Shown: piece after piece, positions 39,759 to 59,074 of the stretch
Numbering within the stretch: the first letter of the stretch is position 1
Layout of the letters: every line of letters begins with the position of its first letter
Made by a program: the position numbers and the translations under genes
Assembly (NCBI GenBank): GCA_016219965.1
Contig: JACRJM010000007.1
Coordinates: forward strand, 1 to 64,000
DNA: 64,000 nucleotides
Source of the DNA: Candidatus Schekmanbacteria bacterium
Lineage (GTDB): Bacteria; Schekmanbacteria; GWA2-38-11; J061
Direction: 5' to 3'
Notes under the pieces: generated by a model
What the model was told of the DNA's origin: nothing
The model's database searches: none
Seen by the model: only the letters and a program-made list of their open reading frames with translations

Positions 39759-39782
39759 TATGTTTCTCCTTTTAACTTCGAT

Positions 39783-40439: not shown

Positions 40440-40495
40440 TTACATTACTTCTGTATGAAATGATCATGAATTAAAGGTAAAAAGTTTACGGAAAG

Positions 40496-42106
40496 TTACT
40501 TGTCAAAAGAAAGGAATTTTTCTGCAATATATAATTGGGATTTATCTTTGCCTGTTTTTTTAGCATAATAGAGTGCCTGATCAGCTTTTTCCACCAACTC
40601 ATTACAGGACAATCCATCTTTGGGAAACTCAACAATCCCTGCACTTAGTGTGATAATAGCAGGGATATTAGCACCATTCAGAAAAAATTCTCTATTGCGT
40701 GTTACCTCCAGAATTCTGTCTGTTAAAATCAGTGCTTGGGAGCTGTCCGTCCTTGGAAGAAGAAGAGCAAATTCTTCTCCACCGTACCGTGCTACAAAGT
40801 CCGATTCTCTGCAATGTTTCTTGAGAATATTGGAAACAGCTATCAACACACGGTCACCAGCTTTATGCCCATATTTGTCATTGACGCTTTTAAAACAATC
40901 TATATCAAACATTACAATTGAAAATTTTTGATTATGCCTTTTTGAAACTGATATTTCCTGCTTTAGCCGCTGGTAAAAGAACCTGTGATTATAGGATTCG
41001 GTAAGCCCGTCAACACTGCTCATATTTCTAAGCTTCTCAACATACTTTGCATTCTGGAGCGCCACAGAAAAATGTATGGCAAGATCAGATAAAAGTTTCA
41101 AATCGTCATCAGTAAAATAATTTACAGCAGGGTCATTCGCGCTAATCACTCCCAGAATTTTGCTTTCAGAAATAATTGGAACGCATAAAAACGATTTAAT
41201 GTCACGGCATAGTCCACCATAATAAGTGAATCCATCTACTTCTGATACATCCCCTACTAATACGGGTTTACCGGTAGTTGCAACGTTGCCGGATATTCCT
41301 TCGCCAAGATTAATTATGACCTTTTTTTCTATTCCTTTAGGAAAACCAACTGCCGTCTTTATTTCCAGTTGAGAAGTCTCTTCATTAACCAAAAAAATGC
41401 AAAACCTCTTAAATCCCAGCATCCTCGATATGGTAGAATTAATTTTATTAAAAAACTCATTTAAATCTACGCCGGCACTGCCAATATTCCCTACTTCATT
41501 AAGTATTTTCAGCTCGTCCGTTTTAATGGTTAATTCTTTTTTTATTTTATTATATACATCTTTTTCCCTCTCAAGCTTTCTTTCAAGATTGTTTATGTAT
41601 TTAATGTACTTGTTCTGCCCAACAGATATTTTGCTCATGAAAAAGGGAATTGAAAGAAAAAAACCAATCCTTATGATTATATGAGGTAAATCTATTTCAC
41701 CACTTGGCTTGTACAGACAGACAGAGCCATAAAGCATCGAATCAAGCAGAGATATCAACATGGCAGTTTTAAAATCAAATGATAACGTACATAATCCAAT
41801 ATAAAAGTAATAAACAAGATATATCTGGCTATTGCCCTTCCCTGTGAAGAATACAAGCAATGTTATGAACAGGCTATCCAGAATAAGAAAAAAAATAGAT
41901 ATGATGATAATCTTTTCCTTGGACTTACAATCCTTCAACATTACGTTTAAGACACTGCTATAAAAAACAAAAGCAACAATAAGCAGTAATTGCTTAGAAT
42001 AATCACTGATAGAATCTAAAAGAGTGAGAGGCAATAAGGCTATTACTGCAAAAATACGACCTTTTAATGAAAAAATATATTTTGAGCTATTTATCGCTAT
42101 GTTCAT
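40496..42106 (-). CDS. GAF-GGDEF diguanylate cyclase, membrane-bound
   Basis: 536 aa: about 5-6 membrane helices (1-165), a coiled linker (170-205), a GAF domain (about 210-360) and a GGDEF domain (about 370-530). The active motif is GGEEF in ARYGGEEFALLL. Five residues earlier RESD forms the RxxD inhibitory (I) site, so the enzyme should make c-di-GMP and be feedback-inhibited. The ligand of the GAF domain is unknown. Together with the HD-GYP protein at 5.4 kb it shows a functional c-di-GMP system. Start ATG 42106 has no strong ribosome binding site. Confidence 0.93.
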   Translation of the reverse strand: MNIAINSSKYIFSLKGRIFAVIALLPLTLLDSISDYSKQLLLIVAFVFYSSVLNVMLKDCKSKEKIIIISIFFLILDSLFITLLVFFTGKGNSQIYLVYYFYIGLCTLSFDFKTAMLISLLDSMLYGSVCLYKPSGEIDLPHIIIRIGFFLSIPFFMSKISVGQNKYIKYINNLERKLEREKDVYNKIKKELTIKTDELKILNEVGNIGSAGVDLNEFFNKINSTISRMLGFKRFCIFLVNEETSQLEIKTAVGFPKGIEKKVIINLGEGISGNVATTGKPVLVGDVSEVDGFTYYGGLCRDIKSFLCVPIISESKILGVISANDPAVNYFTDDDLKLLSDLAIHFSVALQNAKYVEKLRNMSSVDGLTESYNHRFFYQRLKQEISVSKRHNQKFSIVMFDIDCFKSVNDKYGHKAGDRVLIAVSNILKKHCRESDFVARYGGEEFALLLPRTDSSQALILTDRILEVTRNREFFLNGANIPAIITLSAGIVEFPKDGLSCNELVEKADQALYYAKKTGKDKSQLYIAEKFLSFDK

Positions 42107-42249
42107 GGTTTTTTTCTGGCATACTTAATCAAAGAAATCAGACAGTTATATATTACTAGTGATTTATCATATCGTTGTCAACTAGGCAAGTCTTAAGAAT
42201 TACTTTTATTAACATAAACAAGAGAGTTTTAGTAACAGGTAAAAAACGC

Positions 42250-42277
42250 TTGACAATTAAATTTATAAATCTAATAT
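42250..42277 (+). promoter_or_regulatory. Promoter of the marR-chelatase operon
   Basis: Perfect TTGACA (42250-42255), then TAATAT (42272-42277) after 16 nt. The predicted start falls near 42284, about 43 nt before the marR start codon. The -10 is overlapped by the left arm of an inverted repeat. Confidence 0.5.
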
Positions 42278-42309
42278 TTAGGTTATGAAATATTTTTATA
42301 CCTAAATAT
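42274..42309 (+). promoter_or_regulatory. Inverted repeat, candidate MarR operator
   Basis: ATATTTAGGT (42274-42283) and ACCTAAATAT (42300-42309) are perfect 10-bp arms separated by 16 nt. The repeat covers the -10 box and transcription start and ends 17 nt before the marR gene. MarR regulators usually bind such palindromes and repress themselves, so this is the likely operator of the whole 13-kb unit. The 16-nt gap is wider than in a typical single MarR site. Confidence 0.55.
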
Positions 42310-42326
42310 AAGGCAATAGAAAAAAT

Positions 42327-42785
42327 ATGAAAACTGAAAAAACAGATGAACTGGGAGAACACATTCTCAAGGTTAAGGATTTTTTCATAGAGTTTACCAA
42401 GAAGGTCATTTCTCTGGATGGTGCAAAATTGAGCTTTGAACTCAATCTTTCAGAACTCAAAGCACTTACTGCATTCACAGATGATAAAAAGAAGTGCACA
42501 ATGAGCGAGCTTGCAAGAAACGCCGGTGTAACAATGCCCAGTATGACAGAAGTAATAGACAGTCTAGTTAAAGAGAACATTGTAGAAAGGCAAAGGGATG
42601 AAAATGACCGCAGAGTAGTTCTCGTTGAATTAACTGAAAAGGGTAAAAGGATGAGAAAAGAATTTATGGACAGGAGGAGGCTGGAGCTAATAAATATTTT
42701 TAACCGTCTTGATAGAAACGAGCGGAAGGAGTTTGTTGAGTCTCTTGAAAAAGTCAGATCCATACTCCAAAAATTAAATATTTAA
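42327..42785 (+). CDS. MarR-family transcriptional regulator
   Basis: 152 aa winged-helix regulator. N- and C-terminal helices flank a DNA-binding domain (about 50-115), in which MSELARNAGVTMPSMTEVIDSLVKENIV is the recognition helix-turn-helix, and RQRDENDRRVVLVELTEKGK is the wing with the conserved DxR. MarR proteins are dimeric repressors released by small molecules or oxidised cysteines. Here the only cysteine is in DDKKKCTMSEL. As first gene of a chelatase/metal-transport operon it may sense a metal or tetrapyrrole. It is 43 nt upstream of the large chelatase subunit. Confidence 0.92.
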   Translation: MKTEKTDELGEHILKVKDFFIEFTKKVISLDGAKLSFELNLSELKALTAFTDDKKKCTMSELARNAGVTMPSMTEVIDSLVKENIVERQRDENDRRVVLVELTEKGKRMRKEFMDRRRLELINIFNRLDRNERKEFVESLEKVRSILQKLNI

Positions 42786-42828
42786 CTAATCTTCTCTTTC
42801 AAACAATAAATAATGTGGAGGCGCACAA

Positions 42829-45800
42829 ATGCACTTTACCGCAATAATCGGTGATTATACCTATAGCAAATCTCTGGCCGAAGCATCAGATCTTCTCAAA
42901 AAGAAATTTGGAGGGAAGGTAACTTTAGACTATTTCTTCTGTCTTCGTCACCAGAAATTTGAGCGCCGGCAGCTCAGTGAAATTGAAGAAAACGTTAAAA
43001 AGGCAGACACCGTAATCGTCAACATGATTTTTGATGATGAAATCATAGAAATTTTGGAAAGGCATAAAAGTGACAATAAAAACTATTTAATACTGGCTTC
43101 CATGCCGCGGGGATTAGTACTTACAAAGATCGGTAAATTCAGCCTTTCAAGTATCTCCATGCCTGATAAATCATCAATGCTCGGTAAGGCATTGGGTGTA
43201 TTGCGGGGACTCATGAGTTCAAGCAAAAGCACTATGGAGGTAAGAAAGCTTCTTGTAATGGCTGATACGATATTGAAAGTATTAAGGTTCGGGAAATGGA
43301 AGGATGCAGCAAATTATATAAGAGTATGGAAATATTTTTATGCCGGAGGAATGAACAATATTAAAAACCTTTTTCTCTTCCTCCTTTCAGAATACTACGG
43401 ATTCAAAACAGAATATGATTTGCCTGAAGAAATTCCACAGGGTGCCATATATCATCCTAAGGCCGGCAAGATCTATGATGACGTAGAAGAGTACCTAAAA
43501 TGGTACAAAAATTCAGGCCTTCTAAGGACCAACGGCTTCAAGAAAACTCCATATGTGGGGATTTTGTTCTACATGCAGCGTTATCAGACGCAGGACATAA
43601 ACGATCTCCTTGCAGTTATAGAATCACTCGAAAAGCACGGCGTTGGAGCCATGCCGATTCTTACATCAGGTTCTGAAAACATGAAGAATATGGAGCGTCA
43701 TTTCACTGTAAAGGGAAAATCACGGGTTGAAGCCATTATAAGTTTCCTCTTCTTCAGGATCGAGGGCGGACCCTTAGGCGGAGACTATGAAGCGTTTATA
43801 AACCTTGCAAAGAAGATTAATGTACCGCTGATTAAATATATGAATATGGGTTATACCACTATCGAAGAATGGAAACAAAGGAGCGAAGGAATGGCTCCGC
43901 TTGAAACTACCATTACAACAATACTACCTGAGCTCGATGGGCTTATCGAAGGGGTTTTGGTTGCAGGTCATGTAGATTCTACGGAAGACAAAGGAAAAAT
44001 TATCAGGACAATGGAACCTATCCCGGACAGGGTTGAACGTGCTGTTGAGAGGACAACACGCTGGATAAAGCTGAGGCAGACGGAGAATAAAGACAAGAAG
44101 GTCGCTTTTGTACTTTTTAACTATCCTCCAGGAAAAGACAACATTGGAAACGCGGGAAACCTCGACACATTTGAAAGCATAATCCGGTTATTCGACGCCA
44201 TGAGGAAAGAAGGGTACGATGTCTCAGGCTATCCTAAAACGCGTCAGGAATTCGTAAGACTCATGGTAAAGAAAAATCTCGTTAATCTTAGCGACTGGAC
44301 AGGTATGCAGAAGATAAAGGAAAATGCTTTTAAAGTGCCTTTATCAACATATCGTAAATGGTTTGAAGAGATTCCAAAGGAAAATCAGGAAGAAGTATCC
44401 AAAATGTGGGGAGATATCCCGGGGAAAATCCTGGCTGATGACGAATCTCTCCTTGTCCCCGGCATTACATTTGGTAATATTTTTCTAGGGTTTCAGCCGC
44501 CAAGGGGATATTTTGAGGATCCTTCAAAAACCTATCATGACAGCGGGATAGTTCCCCATCACCAGTACCTTGCTTACTACATGTGGCTGCAAAATGAATT
44601 CAAGGCAGACCTCCTCGTACACTTTGGAACCCACGGCACACTTGAATTTCTTCCCGGAAAACAGGTTGCCCTCTCACAAAACTGCTATCCGAGCATCCTG
44701 ATAGGAAACATGCCACACGTTTATTACTATACCTGCTCAAATCCTTCGGAATCGTCAATAGCAAGAAGGAGAAGCCAGGCTACAATGGTCGATTACATGA
44801 CCCCTCCGATGATAGTATCAGACCTATATGGCAGGCTTGCAGAGCTTGAAAGCGAGATAAACAACTATTTCCAGCAAAAAGACCAGAGCCCTGCCCAGTT
44901 AGGAATGATAAAAGAACGCATACTGAACATGGCCAAGGATGAGAACCTTATTGATATTATGGCAGAGGATGTTGATGTAAGCACACTCTATGATTCCCTT
45001 ATTGAAATGAAGGGAAGTCTTATGACAAAAGGAATTCACGTACTTGGAAATTCCTTAAAGGGAAAAGAGCTTATTGATTATGTCATGGGCATAGTCAGAT
45101 TCGACAAAGGCGATGTTGTATCTTTATTCAGAATTGTTGCTGCCACTTACGGTATTGACTGGGAAGAAGCGAGGGAAACTCCCTCAAAGATTCATAGCGA
45201 CGGAAGACCGCTGGGAATTATCCTGAAAGAGACAGAGGAAAAGGGATACCGCATTCTCACCGATTACCTTGAATCATCTTATCCCAATGTTAAGAAGATT
45301 GCAGGTAAAGTACTCAATGGAAATCTCAGCTCAGACGACTTGAAGAATCTTGAGAAGACATTGCAGTTTGCAAAGATTGTTGCTGGCAATCTATCCAAGA
45401 ATACTGAGATAGAAAGTCTCATAGCATCATTTTCAGGAAAATATATAGAGCCTGGCGTTGGCGGCGACCCGGTTAGAAGCCCGAGCGTCATACCAACAGG
45501 CAGGAACATTTACCAGTTCAATCCTGACCTCATACCAACCCTTGCTGCTGTCCAGAGAGGTGTCACTGTGGCTGAACAGGTAATCACCGGTTATAAAGAG
45601 GAAAACGAAGGCACCACCCCTGAAACAGTCGGAGTAATCCTTTGGGGATTTGAAACAATGAAAACTCAGGGAGAAACTGTGGCGGAAATCTTTCAGTATC
45701 TTGGGGTCGAACCAAGATGGTCAGGAACCGGAGATTTTGTCGGGGTAAAGCCTATACCACTTGAAAAACTCGGAAGACCCAGGCTTGATGTAGCAGTCGA

Positions 45801-46728
45801 AATCTGCGGCATATTCCGTGACACATTCCCTCTGCTCTTGAAGCTCATTGACAGGGCATTCAACATTGTGGCAGACCTCGATGAACCGCATGACAAGAAT
45901 TACGTACGCAAACATTCAGAGGAAATTTGCAGAACATTAATTGAAAAAGAAGTCCCCAAGGATCAGGCATTGGCACTTTCAAGGGCAAGGATTTTCGGCC
46001 CTTCATCAACGAACTACGGAACTGACGTAACGCAGCTCATAGAAACATCCGGCTGGGAGAATTCTGACGAAATAGCCAACCTGCATATTGCAAAAATGTC
46101 GCACATATATGGCGACACATTTCACGCTGTTGCAAGCGCAGATACCTTTAAGGCTGTGCTCGACAAAGTTGATGTCGTAGCCCAGGTAAGAAGCAGCGAT
46201 GAATACGGCATGGCAGATCTTGATCACTATTACGAATTTCTGGGCGGCATGGCAAAGTCCGTTGAAAGTGTAAAAAAGAAAAGTGGCCCTGGCAGGAAAA
46301 AAACTAAGCCTACAATACTGGTAGCAGACACCACTAAAGATAACATCAAGACCAAAAACATAAAGACAACCCTCGAATACGAGGCAAAGACAAAGCTATT
46401 TAACCCGGAATGGATCAAGGGACAGGTTGACAGCGGCTATCGCGGAGTAAAGAACATAAGCCAGAGAGTTGAACATCTAATTGGCTGGTCGGCAACAGCA
46501 GAATCAGTTGATAACTGGGTATGGAGCCAGGTGGCAGAGAAATATCTCTTCGATGAAGCTGTACGAAAGAGCATGATGAAGGAGAACATCTGGGCAGTGG
46601 AACACCAGCTCAATCGTCTCATGGAGGCCTTTAACCGGGGAATCTGGGATGCATCAGAAGAAGAAATAGAAAAGCTAAAGAAAATCTATCTCGAGATTGA
46701 GTCTGAAATAGAAGAGATGGAAGAATAA
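42829..46728 (+). CDS. BchH/ChlH-type magnesium chelatase large subunit
   Basis: 1299 aa, the porphyrin-binding subunit of an ATP-dependent metal chelatase. The first ~170 residues resemble the ChlH/BchH N-terminal domain (DUF3479), which CobN lacks. The CobN/Mg-chelatase domain follows, with LLVHFGTHGTLEFLPGKQ (about 597-614), SGWENSDEIANLHIAKMSHIYG region, GDPVRSPSVIPTGRN, and HYYEFLGGMAKSVE near the end. Known family products carry Mg-protoporphyrin (chlorophyll) or Co-corrin (B12). No chlorophyll or B12 genes are in the window, so metal and macrocycle are unknown. A GGAGG site precedes the ATG. Confidence 0.9.
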   Translation: MHFTAIIGDYTYSKSLAEASDLLKKKFGGKVTLDYFFCLRHQKFERRQLSEIEENVKKADTVIVNMIFDDEIIEILERHKSDNKNYLILASMPRGLVLTKIGKFSLSSISMPDKSSMLGKALGVLRGLMSSSKSTMEVRKLLVMADTILKVLRFGKWKDAANYIRVWKYFYAGGMNNIKNLFLFLLSEYYGFKTEYDLPEEIPQGAIYHPKAGKIYDDVEEYLKWYKNSGLLRTNGFKKTPYVGILFYMQRYQTQDINDLLAVIESLEKHGVGAMPILTSGSENMKNMERHFTVKGKSRVEAIISFLFFRIEGGPLGGDYEAFINLAKKINVPLIKYMNMGYTTIEEWKQRSEGMAPLETTITTILPELDGLIEGVLVAGHVDSTEDKGKIIRTMEPIPDRVERAVERTTRWIKLRQTENKDKKVAFVLFNYPPGKDNIGNAGNLDTFESIIRLFDAMRKEGYDVSGYPKTRQEFVRLMVKKNLVNLSDWTGMQKIKENAFKVPLSTYRKWFEEIPKENQEEVSKMWGDIPGKILADDESLLVPGITFGNIFLGFQPPRGYFEDPSKTYHDSGIVPHHQYLAYYMWLQNEFKADLLVHFGTHGTLEFLPGKQVALSQNCYPSILIGNMPHVYYYTCSNPSESSIARRRSQATMVDYMTPPMIVSDLYGRLAELESEINNYFQQKDQSPAQLGMIKERILNMAKDENLIDIMAEDVDVSTLYDSLIEMKGSLMTKGIHVLGNSLKGKELIDYVMGIVRFDKGDVVSLFRIVAATYGIDWEEARETPSKIHSDGRPLGIILKETEEKGYRILTDYLESSYPNVKKIAGKVLNGNLSSDDLKNLEKTLQFAKIVAGNLSKNTEIESLIASFSGKYIEPGVGGDPVRSPSVIPTGRNIYQFNPDLIPTLAAVQRGVTVAEQVITGYKEENEGTTPETVGVILWGFETMKTQGETVAEIFQYLGVEPRWSGTGDFVGVKPIPLEKLGRPRLDVAVEICGIFRDTFPLLLKLIDRAFNIVADLDEPHDKNYVRKHSEEICRTLIEKEVPKDQALALSRARIFGPSSTNYGTDVTQLIETSGWENSDEIANLHIAKMSHIYGDTFHAVASADTFKAVLDKVDVVAQVRSSDEYGMADLDHYYEFLGGMAKSVESVKKKSGPGRKKTKPTILVADTTKDNIKTKNIKTTLEYEAKTKLFNPEWIKGQVDSGYRGVKNISQRVEHLIGWSATAESVDNWVWSQVAEKYLFDEAVRKSMMKENIWAVEHQLNRLMEAFNRGIWDASEEEIEKLKKIYLEIESEIEEMEE

Positions 46729-46753
46729 CATCCTGAAAGGAAACTCACAACAA

Positions 46754-48181
46754 ATGCAAGGATCAAAAAACCAGCAGGGAGAGTCAGAGAACAAAAGTCA
46801 CGGGCATAGCCACTCTCACGGTCATCCTCATGGAAAGATTTCAATAGATCTCACTGAAGGGAATATATCAAAAAATCTCTGGTCACTGGCATCACCTATG
46901 ATTATAAGCCAGATAGTACAGACCGTATTCTATATCGCTGACCTCATATTCGTTGGAATGGTCGGTTCAACCGCCATAGCATCGGTATCAATTGCAACTA
47001 TATTCATGATGACACTTTCAACCGCGGCTCATGGACTCTCTATCGGAACAACCGCCATAATCGCCAGATTAGTAGGGCAAAGAAAGGATGATGAAGCTGC
47101 ATTTATAGCCGGTCAGTCAATAATGTTATGTTTCCTGCTTGGGGCAGCAATTGGTATACCTGCATATTTCAAAGGAGAAGCCCTTTTCGGTTTTCTTGGC
47201 GCAAATGAAGAACTTGTAAAGGTAGGAGTAGGCTATTTCAAGATATCACTGCTTGGCATATTTGCCCTTTTTCTGCAGTTTATAACAAGCTCTATATTCA
47301 GGGCAACCGGGGAGGCAAGGATATCCATGCTTCTTACCCTCATGGCAACAGCACTTCACTTTATCTTTGATCCGCTTCTCATATTCGGCATAGGTCCTTT
47401 CCCCAAACTTGGCGTGAACGGTGCTGCGTACGCATCAATAATAGCACTGGTCATATCTTCAGCCACCGGTACCATAATGCTTCTTAGCGGATCATACAGG
47501 ATTAAGGTTGTTGCCAAAGACTTTACTATAAATCTCTCCGCACTATGGAGGATATTTAAAATAGCCATACCTGCAGCTTCAAGAAGACTGATACGCGATG
47601 CAGCCAGAATGGTAATGATGAAAATAGTGGCCATCTATGGAACAAGCGCAATCGCCGCCTATGGCATAGGGATGAGACTTGACATGATAGCAATGCTCCC
47701 CGGGATGGGTCTCTCTGCTGCAACGTCAACACTGGTAGGACAAAACCTTGGCGCAGGGAAACCGGAAAACTCCGAAAAAAGCACATGGATATCAGTAAAA
47801 CATCTTAGCCTCATTATGTCAGTGTTCGCGGTGATATTTTTTGTATTTGCTCCTTATATTATTTCAATGTTTGACAGGGCTTCCAATGTAATCTCTGCAG
47901 GTACTGAATATATGCATTATATTTCGATATCATACATTTTCGTTGCAATAATAATGGTTATTGGAGGAGCATTTAATGGTGCAGGCGACGCCATGTCCCC
48001 TCTTGTGATTTCAGGATCAGCAGCATGGATATTGCAACTTCCTCTGGCAGGTTTACTTGCAACAAAAATGAGTTTCGGCCCTGCGGGAATATGGGGAGCG
48101 ATCCTGCTCAGTGCAATAATAGAGTCAGCCGCCTTTCTCATCTGGTTTAAGCAGGGCAACTGGAAATTAAAAAAAGTTTAA
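46754..48181 (+). CDS. MATE-family exporter with His-rich N-terminus
   Basis: 475 aa with twelve membrane helices, two homologous MatE halves (GNISKNLWSLASPMI at the start of the first). Unusually, a cytosolic extension contains six alternating histidines at 16-26 (HGHSHSHGHPH), a metal-binding tail not usual in MATE drug exporters. Inserted between the large and small chelatase subunits with gaps of 25 and 35 nt, it may export the metal chelate, its macrocycle or a toxic metal complex. That is inference. The family normally uses Na+ or H+ gradients. Confidence 0.9.
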   Translation: MQGSKNQQGESENKSHGHSHSHGHPHGKISIDLTEGNISKNLWSLASPMIISQIVQTVFYIADLIFVGMVGSTAIASVSIATIFMMTLSTAAHGLSIGTTAIIARLVGQRKDDEAAFIAGQSIMLCFLLGAAIGIPAYFKGEALFGFLGANEELVKVGVGYFKISLLGIFALFLQFITSSIFRATGEARISMLLTLMATALHFIFDPLLIFGIGPFPKLGVNGAAYASIIALVISSATGTIMLLSGSYRIKVVAKDFTINLSALWRIFKIAIPAASRRLIRDAARMVMMKIVAIYGTSAIAAYGIGMRLDMIAMLPGMGLSAATSTLVGQNLGAGKPENSEKSTWISVKHLSLIMSVFAVIFFVFAPYIISMFDRASNVISAGTEYMHYISISYIFVAIIMVIGGAFNGAGDAMSPLVISGSAAWILQLPLAGLLATKMSFGPAGIWGAILLSAIIESAAFLIWFKQGNWKLKKV

Positions 48182-48216
48182 TATCTATTAATATCTAACA
48201 GAGCCTGGAGAGATAT

Positions 48217-49302
48217 ATGAGTGAAAAAAAGGAAAAAGTAAAAAGGACTCTCTATCCATTTATTTCAATAGTGGGACAGGAGGAAATGAAGCTTGCCCTT
48301 GAGCTTAATGCCGTTAATCCTTCTATAGGCGGAGTGCTTATCAGAGGAGAAAAAGGGACTGGAAAATCAACAGCAGTAAGAGCACTTGCCGAGATTCTTC
48401 CAGACGTAGCAGTTATAAAGGGATGCCCCTTCAACTGTTCTCCCGACAGCGGAGCATCGCTATGCCCCTATTGCAGGGAAAACTTAGATAAAGCGGATGG
48501 GGACATGACAAAGCTTCCGGTTGAACACAGGAAGATGAAGGTTGTTGACCTTCCCCTGGGAGTAACGGAAGACAGATTGCTTGGAAGCCTTGATATAGAA
48601 AAGGCAATAAAGGAAGGAAAGAGAGAACTCGAGCCCGGGATACTCGCTGAGGTTAACGGCGGTATTCTTTACGTTGACGAGATAAACCTCCTTGATGACC
48701 ATGTTGTTGACGTTCTCCTCGATGCTGCAACCTCAGGTGTAAATGTCGTGGAAAGGGAGGGGATATCATTCTCCCATCCTTCAAAATTCATACTCGTAGG
48801 AACAATGAACCCGGAAGAAGGGGAACTTCGCCCGCAGCTTCTTGACAGGATTGCAATACACGTCAACGTTGAAGGGCTTCAAAACGTAGATGACAGGGTG
48901 AACATAACCCTGCTCAGGAATGAATTTGAAATGGACCCGGTCAAGTTCAACGATAAATACAGGAAGGAGAGCGAAAATCTCTGTAAAAAAATAATTAACG
49001 CCGGCAAGCTCATCGACAGCGTGGAAATATCAGAAAAAGCGCTTGGACTTATATGCCGCATATGCCAGGAGCTTTCCGTTGAAGGACACAGGCCTGACTC
49101 AATGGTCGCAAAAGCCGCAACAACTCTTGCTGCTTTCAGGGGAAGAAAAAAAGTAACCATTGCAGACATTAAAACAGCTGTTAAATACATCCTCACATTC
49201 CGTATCAAACGGGTACCATTCAAATCTGAAGAACATCACGTAACATTCCTTGACGAAGTTGTGGTGAGACTGTCTAAGGAAAAGGGGCTGGAGGTAAACT
49301 AA
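48217..49302 (+). CDS. BchI-type chelatase AAA+ subunit, copy 1
   Basis: 361 aa AAA+ ATPase. Walker A GEKGTGKS (44-51), Walker B LYVDEIN with D154-E155, sensor I in [13 protein letters not shown], and a C-terminal lid. Between Walker A and the helical insert lies a four-cysteine cluster, Cx3C-x8-CxxC (C70, C74, C83, C86), likely a structural zinc site. BchI hexamers drive metal insertion together with the D and H subunits. ATPase motifs look intact. The stop is separated by only 1 nt from the next gene. Confidence 0.9.
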
Positions 49303-49303
49303 T

Positions 49304-51355
49304 ATGGCTATGAACAAGCAAATTAAAGCCTCCCGAGTTCTCTATCCTTTTTCTGCCATGGTCGGGCAGGAAAACATGAAGCTTGCCCTCATCCTGAATG
49401 CAATCAACCCCCAGATAGGCGGGGTACTGATAAGAGGTGAGAAAGGGACCGGGAAATCAACCCTGGTCAGAGCCCTTGCAGAAATACTGCCATCCATTGA
49501 TGTAGTCGAAGGATGCGCCTTTAACTGTAATCCTCACATCTTCACTGAGCTATGCCCCAAATGCCGTACAGATGTTCTCGAGGGGAAAGGCCTCAGGATA
49601 AAAAAAACGCAGGTCAAAGTTGTTGACCTTCCACTGGGCTCTACTGAGGACAGGCTCGTAGGCTCCCTCGACATAGAGCAGGCGGTAAAATTCGGCAAAA
49701 AAGTTCTTGAACCCGGTATACTTGCAGATGCAAACCAGGGAATACTCTACGTTGACGAGATAAACCTGCTCGACGATCATGTGATAGATGTTCTGCTTGA
49801 TGTAGCAGCTTCCGGAGTTAACACAGTTGAAAGGGAGGGGATATCATTTTCCCATCCATCAAGATTTATTCTCGTGGGCACCATGAATCCAGAGGAAGGG
49901 GAGTTGAGGCACCAGCTCTTAGACCGGATCGCTCTGCATGTTGAGGTTAAAGCCCTTGACTCAATAGATGACCGTGTTTCAGTGACACAGCTCCGCAACC
50001 AGTTCGAGAGTACCCCAGATGCTTTCAGGAAAAAATATTCAGTCAAAAGCAGCGATCTTAAAAAGAAAATTGTAGATTCACAGGATTTACTGAAAGAGAT
50101 AGATATCCCGGACAGGACAATGATGCTTGTATGTAAAATGTGCAGAGAGCTTGACGTTGAAGGCCACAGACCTGATGTGATGATTCTTAAGACGGCTTCT
50201 ACCATAGCAGCTTACGAAGGACGAAAGGAAATGACGCAGGAGGACGTGAAGAAAGCAGGCGAGCTTATACTCCCCTGCCGTATCCGTTCCCTTCCTTATG
50301 GTGAAGAATCTTCAACTGATGAGTTGATAGACCAGCTTGTTGACGAGCTCTCACAAGAGATGGAAGAATTCATGCCTCCCTCTGATAGTGACGCAGAGCT
50401 TGAATCAACTGACGAACAGGAAGAAAAAATTGAAGGGCAGATACACCGGATCGGGACCCCTGTTGAAATACCCAAGCAGATGACAAAGAAAAAGGCTGAC
50501 CGCAAAATGCGTTCAGGCTCAGGAAAAAGAATAAAGTCTATTTCGTCCGGAAGAAAGGGAAGATACATTAAACACAGCATCCCCCAGGATGACATCATTG
50601 ACATAGCCTTTGATGCGACAGTCCGCGCTGCTGCACCTCACCAGAGAAGCAGAAGGGAAAAGGAACCATCCAAACATGCCCTGTTAATAAAAAAAGATGA
50701 CATCAGGAGAAAGATACGCCAGAGCAAGGTTTCATCCCTTATCGTTCTTCTTGTTGATGCAAGCGGGACAATGGGAGCACTTGACAGGATGGAATGCGCA
50801 AAGGGAGCAGTATTCTCGCTCCTCATGGATGCTTACCAGAGCAGGGACAAGGTAGCAATGGTTGCATTCAGAGGAAATGACGCGCAGGTAATACTTCCGC
50901 CGACTAACGGGGTCGAGCTTGCAAGGAAACTCCTCACTGACCTCCCCACAGGAGGGAAAACCCCTCTCGCGCTGGGGATGATGAAGGCATTAAACCTTAT
51001 AAAAACTGAGAAGAAAAAGGATGACACAATTGTACCGCTCCTCGTTCTTCTCACAGACGGAAGAGCGAACATATCCATAGTAGCGGATGCAGACCCGATG
51101 GAGGAGATAAAAAAGTTATCAGAGATGATCGCCTCTGAAGACATATACACAGTAATGATTGACACTGAAGTGACAAAGAAAATGAGGTTCCTGAATTTCT
51201 CCTACGGATTTGCAAAGGATATCGCTGAAGCATTGGGAGCAAAATACTACCGAATAGACCAGCTCGACTACCAGAGTCTTGGCTCACTTATTACGATGGA
51301 AAAGAAGATGGCATTCGACCAGGTGGAAAGACAACCAACAGTCTCTTTAAGATAA
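49304..51355 (+). CDS. BchI-BchD fusion: AAA+ and VWA chelatase subunit
   Basis: 683 aa. An N-terminal AAA+ domain (to ~340) with Walker A GEKGTGKS (45-52), cysteine cluster C71, C75, C84, C87 and Walker B D151-E152 is nearly a copy of the gene before. A charged linker (about 355-465) runs from acidic to basic, as in BchD. A VWA domain (about 470-683) has the MIDAS motif DASGTMG at about 485-491. BchD-type subunits dock I-type rings to the H subunit. Classical BchD has a degenerate ATPase, while here Walker A and B are intact. Confidence 0.9.
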
Positions 51356-51368
51356 AGGATGATGTGAA

Positions 51369-52520
51369 ATGGCAAAAAAACAAAAACAGACCAAAACAGA
51401 AAGCAGTGCCTTTACAACCGGAAGGACTAACTTTCCCTTTGCAGCAATAGTTGGACAGGAAAAGATGAAGATGGCATTAATCCTCAATGCAATCAATCCG
51501 CAGATAGGAGGAGTGCTCATAAGGGGAGAAAGAGGGACCGCAAAGACTACCGCAGTAAGAGGACTGGCAGAGATACTCCCCGGAATAGATGTAGTTGACG
51601 GGTGCAAGTTCCGCTGTAATCCCTTTGAACCGGGAAAGATGTGTTCCTCCTGCCGTGACGAATACGACAAAAAGAAAAAACTTCCCCATGTAAAACAGAA
51701 GATGCACATAGCGGAGCTTCCTGTGGGAGCAACCGAGGACAGGGTCGTAGGAACGCTCAACCTTGAAACAGCAATAAAGGAAGGAATAAAAGCCCTTGAA
51801 ACAGGAATCCTCGCAGATGCAAACCGTGGGATACTTTACATAGACAACATCAATCTCCTTGATGACCATATTATGGATGTACTTCTTGATTCTGCTGCCA
51901 TGGGGGTAAACGTGATTGAAAGAGAAGGTGTGTCTGTCTCTCATCCCGCACACTTCATTCTTGTAGGCACAATGAATCCGGAAGAAGGAGAGTTACGGCC
52001 GCAGCTTCACGACAGACTCGCCTTCCATGTGGAAGTAAAAGGGATGTCAGACCTTAACTCAAGGGTGCAGATAGCAAAAAGGATAAGGGAGTTTGAAAAA
52101 GATCCAATCCTTTTCAAGTCACGCTTTGAAGCACAGAGCAGGGAAATTACTGAAAAGATAATCAGGGCAAGGGACATGATTAACAATGTTAAAATATCAG
52201 AATATTTCCTACGAATAATCGCCCGCATGTGCATTGAGCTTGATGTCGACGGCCATCGTCCTGATATTATTATCGCAAGGGGTGCAAAGACCAAAGCAGC
52301 ATATGATGGAAGACATGAAGTGGTGGAAGAAGATGTAAGGCTTGCAAGCGAATTGACTTTAGGCTTCAGGATGAGGAGAACGCCATTCGAGGATGCAGCC
52401 CTTGCTACAGGGAAGTTCCAGCAGGTTCTTGACTATGCAAAACAGATGGAAGATAACGCAGCCAAAGAAAAGAAAAAAGGAAAAAGTAAACAAAAGGCTG
52501 ACACAGCACCTGCATCCTAA
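51369..52520 (+). CDS. BchI-type chelatase AAA+ subunit, copy 3, with altered Walker B
   Basis: 383 aa, third I-type AAA+ protein in a row. Walker A GERGTAKT (53-60) is intact, and the cysteine cluster C79, C83, C92, C95 is conserved. Walker B, however, reads ILYIDNIN: the catalytic glutamate is Asn160 (codon AAC), whereas both sister genes have DEIN. The protein should bind ATP but hydrolyse it poorly, so it may regulate the ring or act as a non-hydrolysing partner. A lysine-rich tail (about 350-383) is unique to this copy. It is 13 nt from the VWA fusion gene. Confidence 0.9.
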
Positions 52521-52554
52521 GTACAATAAATCAGTTTTTTAAGGAGCGATTCCA

Positions 52555-53409
52555 ATGCACGACATTAACCGTGATAAATTCTTCGAAAAGATTTCAGCGG
52601 AAAAGAAAAAGGGACGCAGCAAACCACAGGGTGGCGAATCCCATACATCATCTCACGGGCACAGCCATGATGATCATGATGAAGAAAAAAATCATACACA
52701 CGGCAAACATGAACATAGGCACAACGAGCACGAAACAAAGCATTCTCACCAGCATGATGAAGATAATCACCATGAACATGACAAAGACAATGAACATGAT
52801 CATCACGAACACGATGAACACAAGCACGACGAGCATGACCATGACAAAGCTCACGGGCACCGCCACGACCATGATGAACATGATGAAGACAATGACGAAC
52901 ATTACGGGCATGAACACGACCACGACGAAGATGACCTTGAAGGCCATTCTCATGACGACCACACACATGGCCATGATCACGGCTCATTCGTAGACCGCGC
53001 CTATGTGCATGTCCATGGCCATTCCCACAGGATAAAGCATGATCACACCCATGCGCATAGCCCTGAAGGAGAAAGTGTAATACACAAGATTTTCAACAAT
53101 CCGTTGAGAGACTGGTTTGCACTGATTTTCATGTGTGCACTTTTAGCGGCAAGCCAGCAGTTTGCCATGAGCGACACTCTAAAAGATGGACTATTGATAA
53201 TAGTAACCGTAACAGGGCTTTTCCCTCTTGTAAAAAACGCATTGCTTCAGGGTCTGATGAAGAAAAAGCTGACCCCTGAATTGCCGGCAGCCCTGTTGCT
53301 GATTTTGCTTCTTGCAAATGAAAGATTTTTCATCGCAGCCTTAGCGGCTCTTCTCTTATTTCTGGGAAGTTTCCTTAACCTTGATTTCTCATGGGGAGAA
53401 AAGGACTAA
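52555..53409 (+). CDS. His-rich protein with partial P1B-ATPase membrane domain
   Basis: 284 aa. Residues 30-175 are composed almost entirely of His, Asp, Glu, Lys and Gly, with about 48 histidines, a high-capacity site for Zn, Ni, Co or similar ions. The C-terminal part (about 190-284) has four hydrophobic segments. It aligns by eye with the first membrane helices of the P1B ATPase encoded 3 nt downstream: GLFPLVKNALLQGLM against GLPIVKNSIRAIF. Both proteins also begin MHDI-x-R. The ATPase catalytic domains are missing. I infer a metal-buffering or delivery partner that arose by duplication and truncation. Confidence 0.8.
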   Translation: MHDINRDKFFEKISAEKKKGRSKPQGGESHTSSHGHSHDDHDEEKNHTHGKHEHRHNEHETKHSHQHDEDNHHEHDKDNEHDHHEHDEHKHDEHDHDKAHGHRHDHDEHDEDNDEHYGHEHDHDEDDLEGHSHDDHTHGHDHGSFVDRAYVHVHGHSHRIKHDHTHAHSPEGESVIHKIFNNPLRDWFALIFMCALLAASQQFAMSDTLKDGLLIIVTVTGLFPLVKNALLQGLMKKKLTPELPAALLLILLLANERFFIAALAALLLFLGSFLNLDFSWGEKD

Positions 53410-53412
53410 AAC

Positions 53413-55350
53413 ATGCATGATATAAGCAGAGAATCTATACTACCGGGAAGTGTCGCCGCATCAGTTGGTGAGCACGATCATCATCTGTCAACATTCAATA
53501 TAGAAAAGGTTGAGACTTTTTTTTCTCCTGTTGTCTCCATAATTCTTATTCTTTCTTCTTTCTTTTCAGGCGGGGATAAAACAAGGCTCGGCATTTACCT
53601 TTCCCTTTCAGCATGTGTTTTAAGCGGTTTGCCAATAGTAAAAAATTCGATTCGGGCAATATTTGTGGACGTAAGACTTAACGCCGAGTTCTTAGTCACC
53701 TGCGCGCTCACAGCCTCAATATGGGTCGGAGAATACATGGCAGGCGCCATCGTAGTCCTTATGATGAATGTTGGAGAGCTCCTTGAAGACCTGACCATTG
53801 CAAAGACCGGCGAGGCAATAAGGAAGTTAATTGCCATCACTCCCCAATCTGCGACAGTCATAAGATACGGAATGGAAGAAAGGGTTGACATAGAAGATGT
53901 TATGAAGAACGACCGTGTCCTTGTAAAGCCCGGGGAAAAGATACCTGTTGATGGTTACATCGAGACAGGAAAAGCAGAAATCGAAGAGGCGACTATTACT
54001 GGCGAGCCTCTTCCAGTAACAAAAGAGGAAGGGGATAGCGTTTTTGGCGGAACAATAAACAGGAACGGCGTACTTATAATAAGAGCAACAAGGGTCGGCA
54101 GGGAAACAACTCTTTCAAAGATAGTGGAAATGGTAAAAAAGGCTCAGGCTGAAAAGCCTCCCATAGAAAGAATAGCAGACCGTTTTTCAAGCTGGTTCAC
54201 CCCGGCAATTCTGATTTTCAGCGGCGCTGTTTATTTTTTTACAGGCGAGATAATCCGCTCTGTATCCGTACTCGTTGTTGCATGCCCATGTGCTTTAGTA
54301 ATCGCCACACCAACAGCGGTAGTTGCCGGTATAGGCAACGCTGCCCGGAAAGGGATACTGATTAAAGGTGGGGCTGTCTTAGAAACAATGGGACGTATCA
54401 CGTCATTCGTATTTGATAAGACAGGCACTCTAACATTCGGAAAACCTATGGTAGAGGAGATTCTCCCTCTCGAAGGTTTTAGCGACAAAGCTGTAATAGA
54501 ACTCGCCGCAATGGCTGAGAAAAGGTCAATCCATTCCCTTGCGCATGCCATTCTTGAAAAAGCTCAGGAAATGGGGCTTACAATACCGGCACCGGACAAT
54601 AGTGAAACCATTGTGGGCAGAGGAATCAAGGCAGAGATAGGCGGGGACAAGATAATCTTAGGGAATAAGAAAATATTCACGGATGAGGGAATCCATATCC
54701 CTGAGGATTGCCATATTTTCATAGACGGTCATTCCCGGAACGGGAACACTTCAATAATAGTAGGGCTTAATGGAAAGATTGCAGGCATTGTGGCAGTGTC
54801 AGACAGGATAAGGGAAGAAGTTGGAGAAACTATCAGTGATCTCAGAAAACTTGGGGCAAAAAACATAGTCATGCTTACAGGTGACAGAAAGGAATCTGCA
54901 ACAAAGGCTACAGAGGGAATAGACTTTGACAGGATAGAAGCTGAACTTCTCCCCGAAGACAAGGTCATCCATATAACTAGGATGAAGAATTCTGGTGAAA
55001 AAGTTGCAATGGTGGGAGACGGGATAAATGATGCCCCTGCCCTTGCCCTTGCTGATGTGGGCATTGCAATGGGAGGAGGCGGAACGGACATAGCCATAGA
55101 GTCGGCTGATATCGCCCTAATCTCCGATGATATTTCAAAAATCCCTGAAGGGATTGCCCTTGGAAAGAAAACGATTCAGATCATAAAACAAAGCTTGTTG
55201 ATGTCTGTGATAATAAATGCGGGAGCGCTGTTCTTTGCCTCCACAGGATATCTAGGTCCTATAGGCGGAGCCATAGTCCACAACATCGGTTCCATATTAG
55301 TCGTCGGCAACTCCTCAAGGCTCATCACATACGGGTACAGGAAGAGGTAA
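53413..55350 (+). CDS. P1B-type heavy-metal ATPase
   Basis: 645 aa P-type ATPase. The CPC metal site is at 291-293 (VACPCALV), the phosphorylation site at D335 (DKTGT), the actuator TGEP is in ATITGEPLPV, and the hinge is MVGDGINDAPALA. No N-terminal CxxC HMA domain is present; a short EHDHH stretch (about 19-23) may bind metal. The last helices carry HNIGSILVVGNS, with a histidine where the Zn/Cd subtype has D-x-G and the Co subtype HEGS. The ion is therefore uncertain. It closes the operon; AGGACT precedes the ATG. Confidence 0.93.
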   Translation: MHDISRESILPGSVAASVGEHDHHLSTFNIEKVETFFSPVVSIILILSSFFSGGDKTRLGIYLSLSACVLSGLPIVKNSIRAIFVDVRLNAEFLVTCALTASIWVGEYMAGAIVVLMMNVGELLEDLTIAKTGEAIRKLIAITPQSATVIRYGMEERVDIEDVMKNDRVLVKPGEKIPVDGYIETGKAEIEEATITGEPLPVTKEEGDSVFGGTINRNGVLIIRATRVGRETTLSKIVEMVKKAQAEKPPIERIADRFSSWFTPAILIFSGAVYFFTGEIIRSVSVLVVACPCALVIATPTAVVAGIGNAARKGILIKGGAVLETMGRITSFVFDKTGTLTFGKPMVEEILPLEGFSDKAVIELAAMAEKRSIHSLAHAILEKAQEMGLTIPAPDNSETIVGRGIKAEIGGDKIILGNKKIFTDEGIHIPEDCHIFIDGHSRNGNTSIIVGLNGKIAGIVAVSDRIREEVGETISDLRKLGAKNIVMLTGDRKESATKATEGIDFDRIEAELLPEDKVIHITRMKNSGEKVAMVGDGINDAPALALADVGIAMGGGGTDIAIESADIALISDDISKIPEGIALGKKTIQIIKQSLLMSVIINAGALFFASTGYLGPIGGAIVHNIGSILVVGNSSRLITYGYRKR

Positions 55351-55369
55351 TTGTATTATTTTTTTTTAT

Positions 55370-57841
55370 CTATGGAGAAGCGGTGGCAGCGGCTTTGCAA
55401 TCTTTACCGTAAACTACACCTGTCAGGTTGAGTGCGCCGCCGGCCTCAATATCTCCGCTATCATTGCCGCACACATCTCCCTGATTTGCTGTAAGGTCGC
55501 CTGAGATTTTTAATCCCTTCCCCTGATTCTTGTTAATCTGGATGTTTGCGAGCACAGCTACCTCACCTTCGCCTGTCACAGTAATACCATGTCTCCCATT
55601 TCTACTAACCTCAAGAGAGTCAACGCTGCCTGCAAGAACACTGCTTTCACACCAGATACCTTCTTTTTTGTTATTATTGATTTTAGCCTGCTTGTTAATA
55701 ACAACCGATGCCGTCGTATAGATTCCCCGTCCTTTGTTATTAAGCATCTCAATGCCGTCAATCTCAATACCACGTCCATCAGTAACTGCGCCGATATTGG
55801 AAATTCCTGTTCCTCTATTGGAGCTTATTTCATTCGATATACCGTAGATTGTGAGGCTGCCATCCATCGTGATACCATTTCCTTTGTTCTTATTTACCTT
55901 GGCATTCTCCAAAGTAACAACACTGCCTTTAGACTGAACCTTAATACCTATACCTTTATTCCCAATGACCTCAAGAAAATCAACGCCTCCGGCAAGAACA
56001 CTGCTACCGCACCAGATACCCTCCTTTTTGTTCTCGTTGATTTTAGCTTGTTTGTTGATGACAACCGAAGCTGTTGAATAGATTCCTCTGCCTTTGTTGT
56101 TAAGCATCTCAATTCCGTAAATCTCTATTCCACGCCCATCAGTGACTGCACCTATATTGGAAATTCCTGTCCCGCCATTATTGCTGACCTGATTTGCCGT
56201 TCCATAAATTGTGAGGGCACCATCCATAGTAATCCCATTCCCTTTGTTCTTGTTAATCTTCACATTCTCAAGAGTAACAACACTCCCCTTATTTTTGGAC
56301 CAAATACCTGCGCCACCGTTCTTCACTACCTCAAGAGACTGGATTGAGGCTGCAAGGATGCTCCCATGTTGCGTGAAAATGCCTCCATCTTCGTTATGGT
56401 TGATCTTGGCACTCGTGAAAATATCTATTGTATTCACTGCATTGATACCAAAACCATTGTTATCAAGTATCTCCACATCTTCAACAGTTATTTCACCTGC
56501 ACTATATATGCCGTCACCGGAAAAGTTTTTTATTATCATTCCTTTTACTGCTCCATCTATCCCGGAAAAACTTACACCGGTGGCGATCCCTGCATTTATG
56601 CCGTCCAGTTCCACTTTACCGCCGGGTTGCATGGTAGCATCTATTGTCTCTGCCTCTTTAAGTACAGGAAGTTTCTTTTTCGGACGAATAACAGGTGCGA
56701 TAGAACTTGCTTTAGAAGTAGTTCCTCCGCTTATAAAGAAAGTAATTGTATCCTCTCCAACTCGGGCATTTGCTTCCTCCATTGCCGCACGAAGAGTACA
56801 TTCCGGATCACCACCGGCAGTTGTCTTGCCTGTGTTGCAAGCGCCATCTGTTACATCAGTATCAGAACTATCACCTGTGGAATTGACCACCAATCCGGTT
56901 TTCGTCTCTGCCGTGACTGATATATGCACCGGTATCAAATCTATCAGCGGCACACATGCCGAAGGGTTTTCATTGCTGTAATTAGTGACTAGTGGGTTTT
57001 GAATCGTAAGATAATAATCACCGTTACTGCCTAAAGACATTGCAAAGTCTTCATATCCCGCATAGGAGTCAGAAATTATTTCTACAGTGCCGTTGTCTTT
57101 GTAATTGATTTTCCCAAGAGAGATTCTAGGATTATAATATATCTGTCCTGAATAGTTTTCCGGATTGGTTATTGATGCCTTTACGGTAACCTTGTCCCCT
57201 TTTTTTCCGGAAAACTTATAACGAACTATGTCTTTGTCCAAACTTACTGAATAAAAATTCACATCTTTTTCCAGCCCCTTTGACAGCAAAAATTCTTCAT
57301 CGTATGAATTCAGCATATCATATATTCTGTATTTTATATTTGCGGGAAGAGAATTACATATAGGGCAATATTGCGAAGAGCCGGCGTTATAGTTAACCTC
57401 AGGATAGACTTTTAAAATCAATGAAAAATCATTAATATCGTTGGAAGTTGAAGATACCGTCCAATCATAACCACCCGCTTGTGACACGGTAGAAAAATAC
57501 CCACCGTAATCTAATGTGCAATCAGTACAATCATTTGCCGGCTCTATATATCCATAAATATTTGTTGGTTGTTCAGCGGACAGGAAAATTCCGTATCTTC
57601 CTTCAGATTTGTTATCAAGCAGACTTTTAATCCCTACCTCAATGGTAAATGGCACTGTTGCAACAGGCAGGCTGCTCTCTCCATTATAAACATCAGAAGG
57701 GATGCAATCAAAGTTTGATATAGTTATCGTCCCGGTTATTGGCACATCACCGTAAGATAAAGAAACCGGCATGAAAAAGCTTAAGATGCCCCCAAACACA
57801 AAAAAAACAGCCAGGAATAATTTACTAAATAATCTCTTCAT
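55370..57841 (-). CDS. Secreted right-handed beta-helix protein (CSLREA type) with internal duplication
   Basis: About 823 aa from ATG 57841, chosen because CGGAG lies 7 nt upstream; an upstream ATG at 57880 lacks a site. A Sec signal peptide is followed by an unassigned beta-rich N-terminal half (to ~330). A CSLREA-like segment (CTLRAAMEEANARVGEDTI) then leads into parallel beta-helix repeats ending near the C-terminus. Repeats have ~23-residue rungs with NKGNGI-type motifs. Two 120-residue blocks are nearly identical. Such proteins are secreted or surface-exposed, with adhesion or glycan-binding roles in general. Confidence 0.8.
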   Translation of the reverse strand: MKRLFSKLFLAVFFVFGGILSFFMPVSLSYGDVPITGTITISNFDCIPSDVYNGESSLPVATVPFTIEVGIKSLLDNKSEGRYGIFLSAEQPTNIYGYIEPANDCTDCTLDYGGYFSTVSQAGGYDWTVSSTSNDINDFSLILKVYPEVNYNAGSSQYCPICNSLPANIKYRIYDMLNSYDEEFLLSKGLEKDVNFYSVSLDKDIVRYKFSGKKGDKVTVKASITNPENYSGQIYYNPRISLGKINYKDNGTVEIISDSYAGYEDFAMSLGSNGDYYLTIQNPLVTNYSNENPSACVPLIDLIPVHISVTAETKTGLVVNSTGDSSDTDVTDGACNTGKTTAGGDPECTLRAAMEEANARVGEDTITFFISGGTTSKASSIAPVIRPKKKLPVLKEAETIDATMQPGGKVELDGINAGIATGVSFSGIDGAVKGMIIKNFSGDGIYSAGEITVEDVEILDNNGFGINAVNTIDIFTSAKINHNEDGGIFTQHGSILAASIQSLEVVKNGGAGIWSKNKGSVVTLENVKINKNKGNGITMDGALTIYGTANQVSNNGGTGISNIGAVTDGRGIEIYGIEMLNNKGRGIYSTASVVINKQAKINENKKEGIWCGSSVLAGGVDFLEVIGNKGIGIKVQSKGSVVTLENAKVNKNKGNGITMDGSLTIYGISNEISSNRGTGISNIGAVTDGRGIEIDGIEMLNNKGRGIYTTASVVINKQAKINNNKKEGIWCESSVLAGSVDSLEVSRNGRHGITVTGEGEVAVLANIQINKNQGKGLKISGDLTANQGDVCGNDSGDIEAGGALNLTGVVYGKDCKAAATASP
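55600..56319. repeat. Tandem 360-bp duplication inside the beta-helix gene
   Basis: Matching landmarks on the plus strand recur exactly 360 nt apart: tcaacgc...gcaagaacactgct at 55621 and 55981, and ccatccat...gtgat/gtaat at 55861 and 56221. The unit encodes 120 residues and keeps the reading frame. The two copies differ at scattered positions, so the duplication is not very recent. Exact borders are estimates. Confidence 0.8.
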
Positions 57842-58162
57842 ATTGTCTCCGAAAAGTAAGCTAATATATTGTTTTTTCAATGCTCTTATTTACCAAAACG
57901 TCTGCTTTTGCTTTACTATATTATATTTTATTAACACATATCAACATCAAATCCTTTCTTTCTCTGCACTCTCTGCAAAGGATAGTTAAGGATAGTTTCA
58001 GAATGTAAAAAAGCAATAATCTATTTGACATTTATCTCTTTTTTATTTAGTTTCAGAGTTCTGCGGAAAACAGAAAGATGCTGAAATATAAGACCACAAT
58101 CTGAAAACCGGTTTTTCCCAGGAAAAATTATATAACATTAACCTTTGGCGCTTTGAGGGAGT
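57842..58162. other. Intergenic region with short tandem repeat and possible ilvE promoter
   Basis: No gene is supported in these 321 nt. A 10-nt unit aaggatagtt occurs twice in tandem at 57978-57997, preceded by ctctgca repeated twice. TTGACA at 58025-58030 with a weak TAGTTT 17 nt away might start ilvE transcription, leaving a leader of about 100 nt. The ilvE ribosome binding site GAGGGAG lies at 58153-58159. Confidence 0.4.
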
Positions 58163-59074
58163 ATGGAAAAGTCTGATAAAATATGGATGGATGGGAAATT
58201 AGTTGACTGGGATGATGCTAAAATCCATATCCTCACCAATACATTCAACTATGGACTCGGCGTTTTTGAAGGAATAAGGTGCTATAACACAGCAAAAGGT
58301 CCTGCTATATTCCGACTCGAAGAGCATCTCGACAGACTTTACAACTCTGCAAAGATAGCGTCCATAAAGCCCAACTTCTCAAAAGATGAACTAAGAAAAG
58401 CGCTTATCAAAACCATAAAAGTCAATAAACTCAAAGAATGCTATATAAAACCAATCATCTATTATGGCTACGGCGAGATCGGTCTATATCCAAAGAACAA
58501 CCCTGTAAACAGCGCTATATCGGTTTATCCATGGGGCGCATATCTTGGGGCAGAGGGATTGTCAAACGGTATAAGTGTTAAAATCTCATCATTCTCAAGA
58601 CATTATATCAACGCTGCCATGACAAAGGCAAAGATATGTGGTTTCTATGCCAATTCTCAGCTTGCCAAGATGGAAGCCATTGAAAACGGATATGACGAGG
58701 CATTGCTTCTTGACACCGAGGGACGGGTTGCTGAAGGCTCAGGGGAAAACCTTTTTATAATAAAAAACGGAAAGTTAATGACGCCTCCGGTGCTTACCGT
58801 ACTTGACGGAATCACTCGGGACAGCGCCATCCAGATAGCCCGCTATAAGAAATATGTGGTTGAAGAAGCATCTCTTACAAGGGATATGGTCTATATAGCA
58901 GACGAAGCATTCTTTACAGGAACTGCCGCCGAGTTGACACCTATCAGGGAAATAGATAAAAGACCTATAGGGATCGGTAAGACCGGTCCGGTGACAAAAC
59001 AGCTTCAGGAGGAATTCTTTAAAGCTGCAAAAGGAAAGAATAAGGATTTTCTCCACTGGCTTACATTTATATGA
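58163..59074 (+). CDS. ilvE: Branched-chain amino acid aminotransferase
   Basis: PLP-dependent class IV aminotransferase, 303 aa, that interconverts Val, Leu and Ile with their oxo acids. N-terminal blocks WMDGKLVDWDDA and FNYGLGVFEGIRCY, the catalytic-lysine region AAMTKAKICGFYANSQLAKMEA (lysine about residue 156), DEALLLDTEGRVAEGSGENLF and the C-terminal DEAFFTGTAAELTPI are typical. Specificity among class IV enzymes (D-amino acid or 4-amino-4-deoxychorismate types) is judged from these blocks. It is followed closely (22 nt) by the zinc-ribbon gene. Confidence 0.93.
   Translation: MEKSDKIWMDGKLVDWDDAKIHILTNTFNYGLGVFEGIRCYNTAKGPAIFRLEEHLDRLYNSAKIASIKPNFSKDELRKALIKTIKVNKLKECYIKPIIYYGYGEIGLYPKNNPVNSAISVYPWGAYLGAEGLSNGISVKISSFSRHYINAAMTKAKICGFYANSQLAKMEAIENGYDEALLLDTEGRVAEGSGENLFIIKNGKLMTPPVLTVLDGITRDSAIQIARYKKYVVEEASLTRDMVYIADEAFFTGTAAELTPIREIDKRPIGIGKTGPVTKQLQEEFFKAAKGKNKDFLHWLTFI

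What the first reader, a model, noticed from the sequence alone, without database searches (positions are those of the whole stretch)
52555..53409. His-rich protein carries a truncated copy of the neighbouring P1B ATPase membrane domain
Beyond its ~48-histidine domain, the C-terminal hydrophobic part aligns with the first helices of the ATPase next door, and both start MHDI-x-R. It lacks the TGEP, DKTGT and GDGINDAP modules. This looks like duplication followed by loss of the catalytic part, leaving a membrane-bound metal sponge that may dock on the pump.
Basis: partly seen in the sequence, partly recalled or inferred. Interest (0 to 1): 0.75.

Follow-up and report, generated by a model that had tools for sequence, protein, structure and literature searches.

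The report
His-rich partner built from pump fragment
Next to a metal pump gene lies a small gene whose protein joins a long histidine-rich, probably metal-binding tail to a copy of the pump's first four membrane helices without the motor; it is kept in all four known genomes of this bacterial group and probably gathers metal for the pump, though that function is untested.

Summary
ORF 52555-53409 (284 aa, 50 His) ends in about 100 residues homologous to the MA-MB-M1-M2 module of P1B ATPases. A profile built only from these C-termini finds P1B ATPases in whole genomes, including the neighbouring pump in all four genomes of the phylum (E 2e-8 to 2e-3). The reversed profile finds none. The protein stops at the end of M2, so every catalytic domain is absent, and the conserved M2 glutamate of the metal-entry site is Asn or Arg.

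Both genes start MHD[IV]xR in all four genomes. That pattern occurs ten times in the four genomes; eight are these starts. The gene pair closes a conserved operon with a MarR regulator and class I chelatase genes (BchH, BchI, BchD, a second BchI). No such pair appeared in about 780 other genomes.

The pump has CPC in M4 and HN in M6, the 'P1B6-like' signature of mycobacterial CtpC, which works with a membrane metal-binding partner, PacL1. The His-rich protein is not a PacL by Pfam.

Duplication of a P1B module is well supported. Origin from this very pump is likely, but the tree does not resolve it. Pump docking and metal donation are inferred. New variant of a known kind.

The parts
52555..53409 (+). 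His-rich membrane protein, 284 aa: MHDINR start, variable His/Asp/Glu-rich region, invariant juxtamembrane His cassette, P1B-type MA-MB-M1-M2 module, stop
52636..52986 (+). variable His-rich region (about residues 28-144); length differs strongly among the four orthologues
52987..53058 (+). juxtamembrane cassette, residues 145-168, FxxRAxxHxHxHxHxxxHxHxHxH, present in all four orthologues
53074..53406 (+). C-terminal module homologous to MA-MB-M1-M2 of P1B ATPases; M2 entry glutamate replaced by Asn (Arg in two orthologues)
53413..55350 (+). P1B ATPase, 645 aa, MHDISR start, CPC in M4 (291-293), HN in M6 (623-624), TGEP, DKTGT, GDGINDAP; no HMA-type metal-binding domain found
53518..53787 (+). 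part of the ATPase matched by the C-terminus profile (MA-MB-M1-M2)
   Evidence: E 1.4e-4
42327..42785 (+). MarR-family regulator, first gene of the conserved cluster
42829..46728 (+). class I chelatase large subunit (BchH/CobN family)
46754..48181 (+). MATE-family transporter with short His-rich N-terminus; at this position only in the window genome
48217..49302 (+). BchI-type AAA+ subunit
49304..51355 (+). BchD-type subunit (AAA+ plus VWA)
51369..52520 (+). second BchI-like subunit with Walker B glutamate changed to Asn (LYIDNINLL)

Best explanation
The gene encodes a catalytically dead relative of a P1B metal pump: a duplicated N-terminal membrane module (MA-MB-M1-M2) in which the usual N-terminal metal-binding domain is replaced by a long His-rich tail. 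By homology with P1B topology the tail faces the cytoplasm (inferred). I propose it sits in the membrane with the neighbouring P1B6-like ATPase, binds divalent metal through the His tail and the invariant juxtamembrane His cassette, and passes it to the pump, serving in trans as the metal-binding domain that this pump lacks. Shown: homology, absence of catalytic parts, loss of the M2 glutamate, shared N-terminal motif, conserved gene pair and operon. Inferred: topology, metal binding, docking and direction of transfer. The metal is unknown (Zn, Ni, Co, Mn, Fe and Cd are all possible).
For: Module homology with a reversed-profile control. The gene stops right after M2 and the conserved M2 Glu is Asn/Asn/Arg/Arg; Glu205 of LpCopA is one of the three residues given for the Cu(I) entry site (PMC7558416). 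Same order and adjacency in all four genomes. MHD[IV]xR start shared by the pair and by no other gene found in the four genomes. The pump has no HMA domain by Pfam. Invariant His cassette. Precedent: the P1B6-like pump CtpC needs the operon-encoded membrane metal-binding protein PacL1 (PMC9374683), and PacL proteins cluster P-ATPases (PMC13043812).
Against: No test of metal binding or interaction was possible. The pair also adjoins chelatase genes, so the His-rich protein could serve the chelatase. The module tree does not place it with the neighbouring pump. The structure model is low confidence (pLDDT 58).
Confidence: 0.55

Rival explanations
1. Metal store or donor for the chelatase: the His-rich protein holds metal at the membrane for the BchH-BchI-BchD complex, as His-rich CobW proteins are thought to for cobaltochelatase (own knowledge), and the P1B module is only an anchor.
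For: The pair lies directly downstream of BchI-BchD-BchI' in all four genomes where visible. His-rich stretches also occur in the MATE protein here and in the NicO/RcnA-like protein of two relatives.
Against: The pair-specific N-terminal motif and the use of a pump module point to the pump. A plain anchor would not need four conserved helices.
Confidence: 0.25
2. Regulatory or structural subunit: the dead module forms a mixed complex with the pump and controls its stability or activity, with the His tail as a metal sensor rather than a donor.
For: Loss of the entry glutamate with retention of the helix module. PacL precedent for stabilising and clustering pumps.
Against: No interface data; hard to separate from the best explanation by sequence.
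Confidence: 0.15
3. Chance resemblance between hydrophobic helices, with no common origin.
For: Pairwise identity is only about 20%, and 10 of 2000 shuffles match the single-pair score.
Against: Profile hits go almost only to the same part of P1B ATPases, and the reversed profile gives none.
Confidence: 0.03
4. Decaying pseudogene fragment of a duplicated pump.
For: Catalytic part missing.
Against: Intact in four genomes of two families with conserved start, His cassette and module.
Confidence: 0.02

Closest known systems
PacL1-CtpC and related PacL/P1B pairs of mycobacteria (DUF1490; DUF6110 relatives)
   Same: Membrane protein with a metal-binding segment encoded directly before a P1B ATPase that has CPC in M4 and HN in M6 (PMC9374683).
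   Different: PacL has one TM helix, Glu/Ala repeats and a short C-terminal metal motif. This protein has a four-helix P1B module and a long N-terminal His region, and no DUF1490 or DUF6110 match.
P1B ATPases, ZntA type and P1B6-like
   Same: The C-terminal module aligns with MA-MB-M1-M2.
   Different: No A, P or N domain, no M3-M6, M2 entry glutamate lost.
E. coli copA frameshift product, a free N-terminal metal-binding domain (PMC5009743)
   Same: The N-terminal part of a P1B pump made as a separate putative metal-binding protein.
   Different: Soluble 70-residue product of one gene by frameshifting; here a separate membrane gene with a His-rich tail.
Class I chelatases (BchH/CobN with BchI, BchD) and HmuS
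   Same: The upstream genes belong to the chelatase families; HmuS is a CobN relative shown to remove iron from heme (PMC12583661).
   Different: HmuS comes from hmuYRSTUV operons; here I and D subunits are present with a metal pump.

Membership tests
P1B ATPase (His-rich protein) | N-terminal membrane module MA-MB-M1-M2 | tested here: met
P1B ATPase (His-rich protein) | TGE, DKTGT and GDGxNDxP modules and M4 CPC/SPC motif | tested here: not met
   sequence ends after M2
P1B6-like ATPase (neighbouring pump) | CPC in M4 and HN in M6 | tested here: met
   CPC 291-293, HN 623-624, invariant in four genomes; criteria from PMC9374683
P1B6-like ATPase (neighbouring pump) | transported metal | not testable with these tools
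   needs transport or tolerance assay
PacL (DUF1490/DUF6110) | match to the Pfam domain | tested here: not met
   no such Pfam hit
PacL (DUF1490/DUF6110) | co-encoded with a P1B6-like ATPase | tested here: met
PacL (DUF1490/DUF6110) | complex with the pump and metal binding | not testable with these tools
   needs biochemistry
Cobaltochelatase for cobalamin (upstream genes) | corrin ring-contraction gene cobJ/cbiH in the genome | tested here: not met
   no match over the cut-off in four genomes
Magnesium chelatase for bacteriochlorophyll (upstream genes) | DPOR subunit BchL in the genome | tested here: not met
   no match over the cut-off in four genomes; the large subunit itself passes the BchH cut-off

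The most novel reading that the evidence does not exclude
The operon is a chelatase-coupled metal export machine: an ATP-driven BchH-BchI-BchD complex loads or strips metal from a tetrapyrrole, and the dead pump paralogue with its His tail carries the metal to or from a P1B pump in one membrane assembly.
Probability: 0.12. Interest if true: 0.85.

Novelty: new variant of a known kind. Interest (0 to 1): 0.55.

Why it matters
Metal-binding partners of P1B pumps are known as soluble chaperones or small one-helix scaffolds. A partner built from the pump's own membrane module would show how accessory subunits of these pumps can arise by partial duplication, and offers a natural test of what the MA-MB-M1-M2 module does apart from catalysis. 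The link to a class I chelatase operon in genomes without detectable cobJ or bchL also raises the open question of which tetrapyrrole and metal are handled.

Tried and rejected
Chance similarity: rejected by the reversed-profile control. Pseudogene: rejected by conservation. PacL membership: no Pfam match. Riboswitch naming the metal: no Rfam match in 39000-58500. Tree of the module: unresolved. PDB profile search with A3: no match at E up to 1. Structure: pLDDT 58; helices at 10-29, 34-63, 69-81 and 83-100 fit the P1B module, and the top PDB fold match is a zinc P1B ATPase (4umv, prob 0.84) but with E 1.4, so not counted; the alignment also held the pump row, which may bias it. A search with the whole pump in genome contigs gave only distant P1B ATPases. 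The NCBIfam sigma-factor hit of the His-rich protein is a low-complexity match far below cut-off. Literature searches for a P1B pump with an accessory protein made from its own membrane module found none, but only open-licence papers are held.

Full report
What is there. The ORF at 52555-53409 (+) encodes 284 aa with 50 His, 49 of them in residues 28-178. Three bases after its stop begins a 645-aa P1B ATPase at 53413-55350. Both sit at the end of a same-strand run with gaps of 1-43 bases: MarR regulator, BchH/CobN-type chelatase subunit, MATE transporter, BchI, BchD, a second BchI-like protein, the His-rich protein and the pump.

The C-terminal part is a P1B module. By single sequences the similarity is weak: score 49 against a shuffle mean of 27.8, reached by 10 of 2000 shuffles. 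Orthologues were found in the three other genomes held of this phylum, with 40-54% identity over the C-terminal module. The four-sequence profile aligned to the four pump N-termini with probability 95%, E 2.6e-8; that E-value is for a single comparison, not a database search. Three orthologue C-termini hit the NCBIfam PRK11033 (zinc/cadmium/mercury/lead-transporting ATPase) model at about positions 122-211, the best at E 3.8e-5; the window's own C-terminus did not hit it.

Whole-genome test. The profile A3 was run over 386 genomes. Apart from the orthologues it matched the neighbouring pump in all four phylum genomes (E 2.0e-8, 6.9e-8, 1.4e-4, 2.4e-3) and frames of 620-1052 aa in 13 others; three further weak hits, in two genomes, lie in short or broken frames, about what chance gives at this threshold. 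The ten loci that I read among the 13 are P1B ATPases, and none has a His-rich membrane gene in the flanks shown. In 396 genomes of another phylum all 20 hits at E 0.001 lie in frames of 395-763 aa; the two read are P1B ATPases. The reversed profile, with the same composition, found 2 chance hits and none in P1B-sized open frames. The homology is therefore specific, and the split pair was seen only in this phylum.

What was kept and lost. The module covers ATPase residues about 36-125, that is MA, MB, M1 and M2, and stops where the A domain would begin. In the alignment of 19 sequences the M2 glutamate of most pumps (LLE/VLE/MLE) is Asn in two and Arg in two of the His-rich proteins. In LpCopA, Glu205 is one of three residues given for the metal entry site, next to the Gly-Gly kink platform where CopZ docks (PMC7558416); that the aligned residue is the equivalent one is my reading of the alignment. 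The His region varies in length among species, but residues 145-168 keep FxxRAxxHxHxHxHxxxHxHxHxH in all four.

The shared start. MHD[IV]xR opens both proteins in all four genomes. The corresponding DNA pattern is expected 0.02 times in the window and occurs twice. In the four whole genomes it occurs ten times; eight are these starts and the other two are not starts of listed ORFs.

Origin. The pair is present in two families of the order, so the duplication is old. A tree of the module keeps the His-rich copies together but does not place them with the neighbouring pump; forcing that grouping is not rejected (p-AU 0.145). Adjacency and the shared start favour the neighbour as source.

The pump. 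It has CPC in M4 and HN in M6, invariant in the four genomes. [quoted passage not shown] PMC13043812 reports that PacL proteins cluster P-ATPases. No HMA-type domain was found in the present pump.

The operon context. The order is kept in the relatives, except that the MATE gene is absent from that position in G003 and G001, and a NicO/RcnA-like gene with a His-rich loop follows the pump in G001 and G002. In G002 the contig ends inside BchI', so the upstream part is unseen. No cobJ/cbiH or bchL match over the cut-off was found in the four genomes, so neither cobalamin nor bacteriochlorophyll synthesis readily explains the chelatase; these are single-gene tests.

Verdict. Observation confirmed; interpretation partly supported. 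The His-rich protein is best read as a non-catalytic P1B-module paralogue acting as metal-binding partner of the adjacent P1B6-like pump. Homology is near certain; function is inference.

Noticed in passing
42327-55350: Class I chelatase genes (BchH, BchI, BchD, BchI') in an operon with metal-handling genes, in four genomes with no cobJ/cbiH or bchL match over the cut-off; substrate unknown.
   Followed up: partly
51369-52520: Second BchI-like subunit has Walker [10 protein letters not shown] (Glu to Asn), also in G003 and G001: another paralogue in this operon that has probably lost catalysis.
   Followed up: partly
46754-48181: MATE transporter with a His-rich N-terminus (HGHSHSHGHPHG) in the operon only in the window genome.
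   Followed up: no
L016 8083-8868 and L017 7394-8176: NicO/RcnA-like transporter with a His-rich loop directly after the pump in two relatives.
   Followed up: partly
L023 4706-8611 (G000:C3:420669-424007): Second, stand-alone BchH/CobN homologue in the same genome, without I or D genes nearby.
   Followed up: partly
L043 6985-10023 (G000:C10): Two adjacent NifH-like genes and a 442-aa protein that by eye may be NifD/K-like; below the BchL cut-off; a similar NifH-like pair in G003:C20.
   Followed up: no
L024 6826-9687 (G000:C3): A ZntA-like P1B ATPase (ADTGTS in the last helix) with a His/Cys-rich C-terminal tail in the same genome.
   Followed up: no
55370-57880: Minus-strand 836-aa protein with near-identical internal repeats, probably a beta-helix surface protein.
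   Followed up: no
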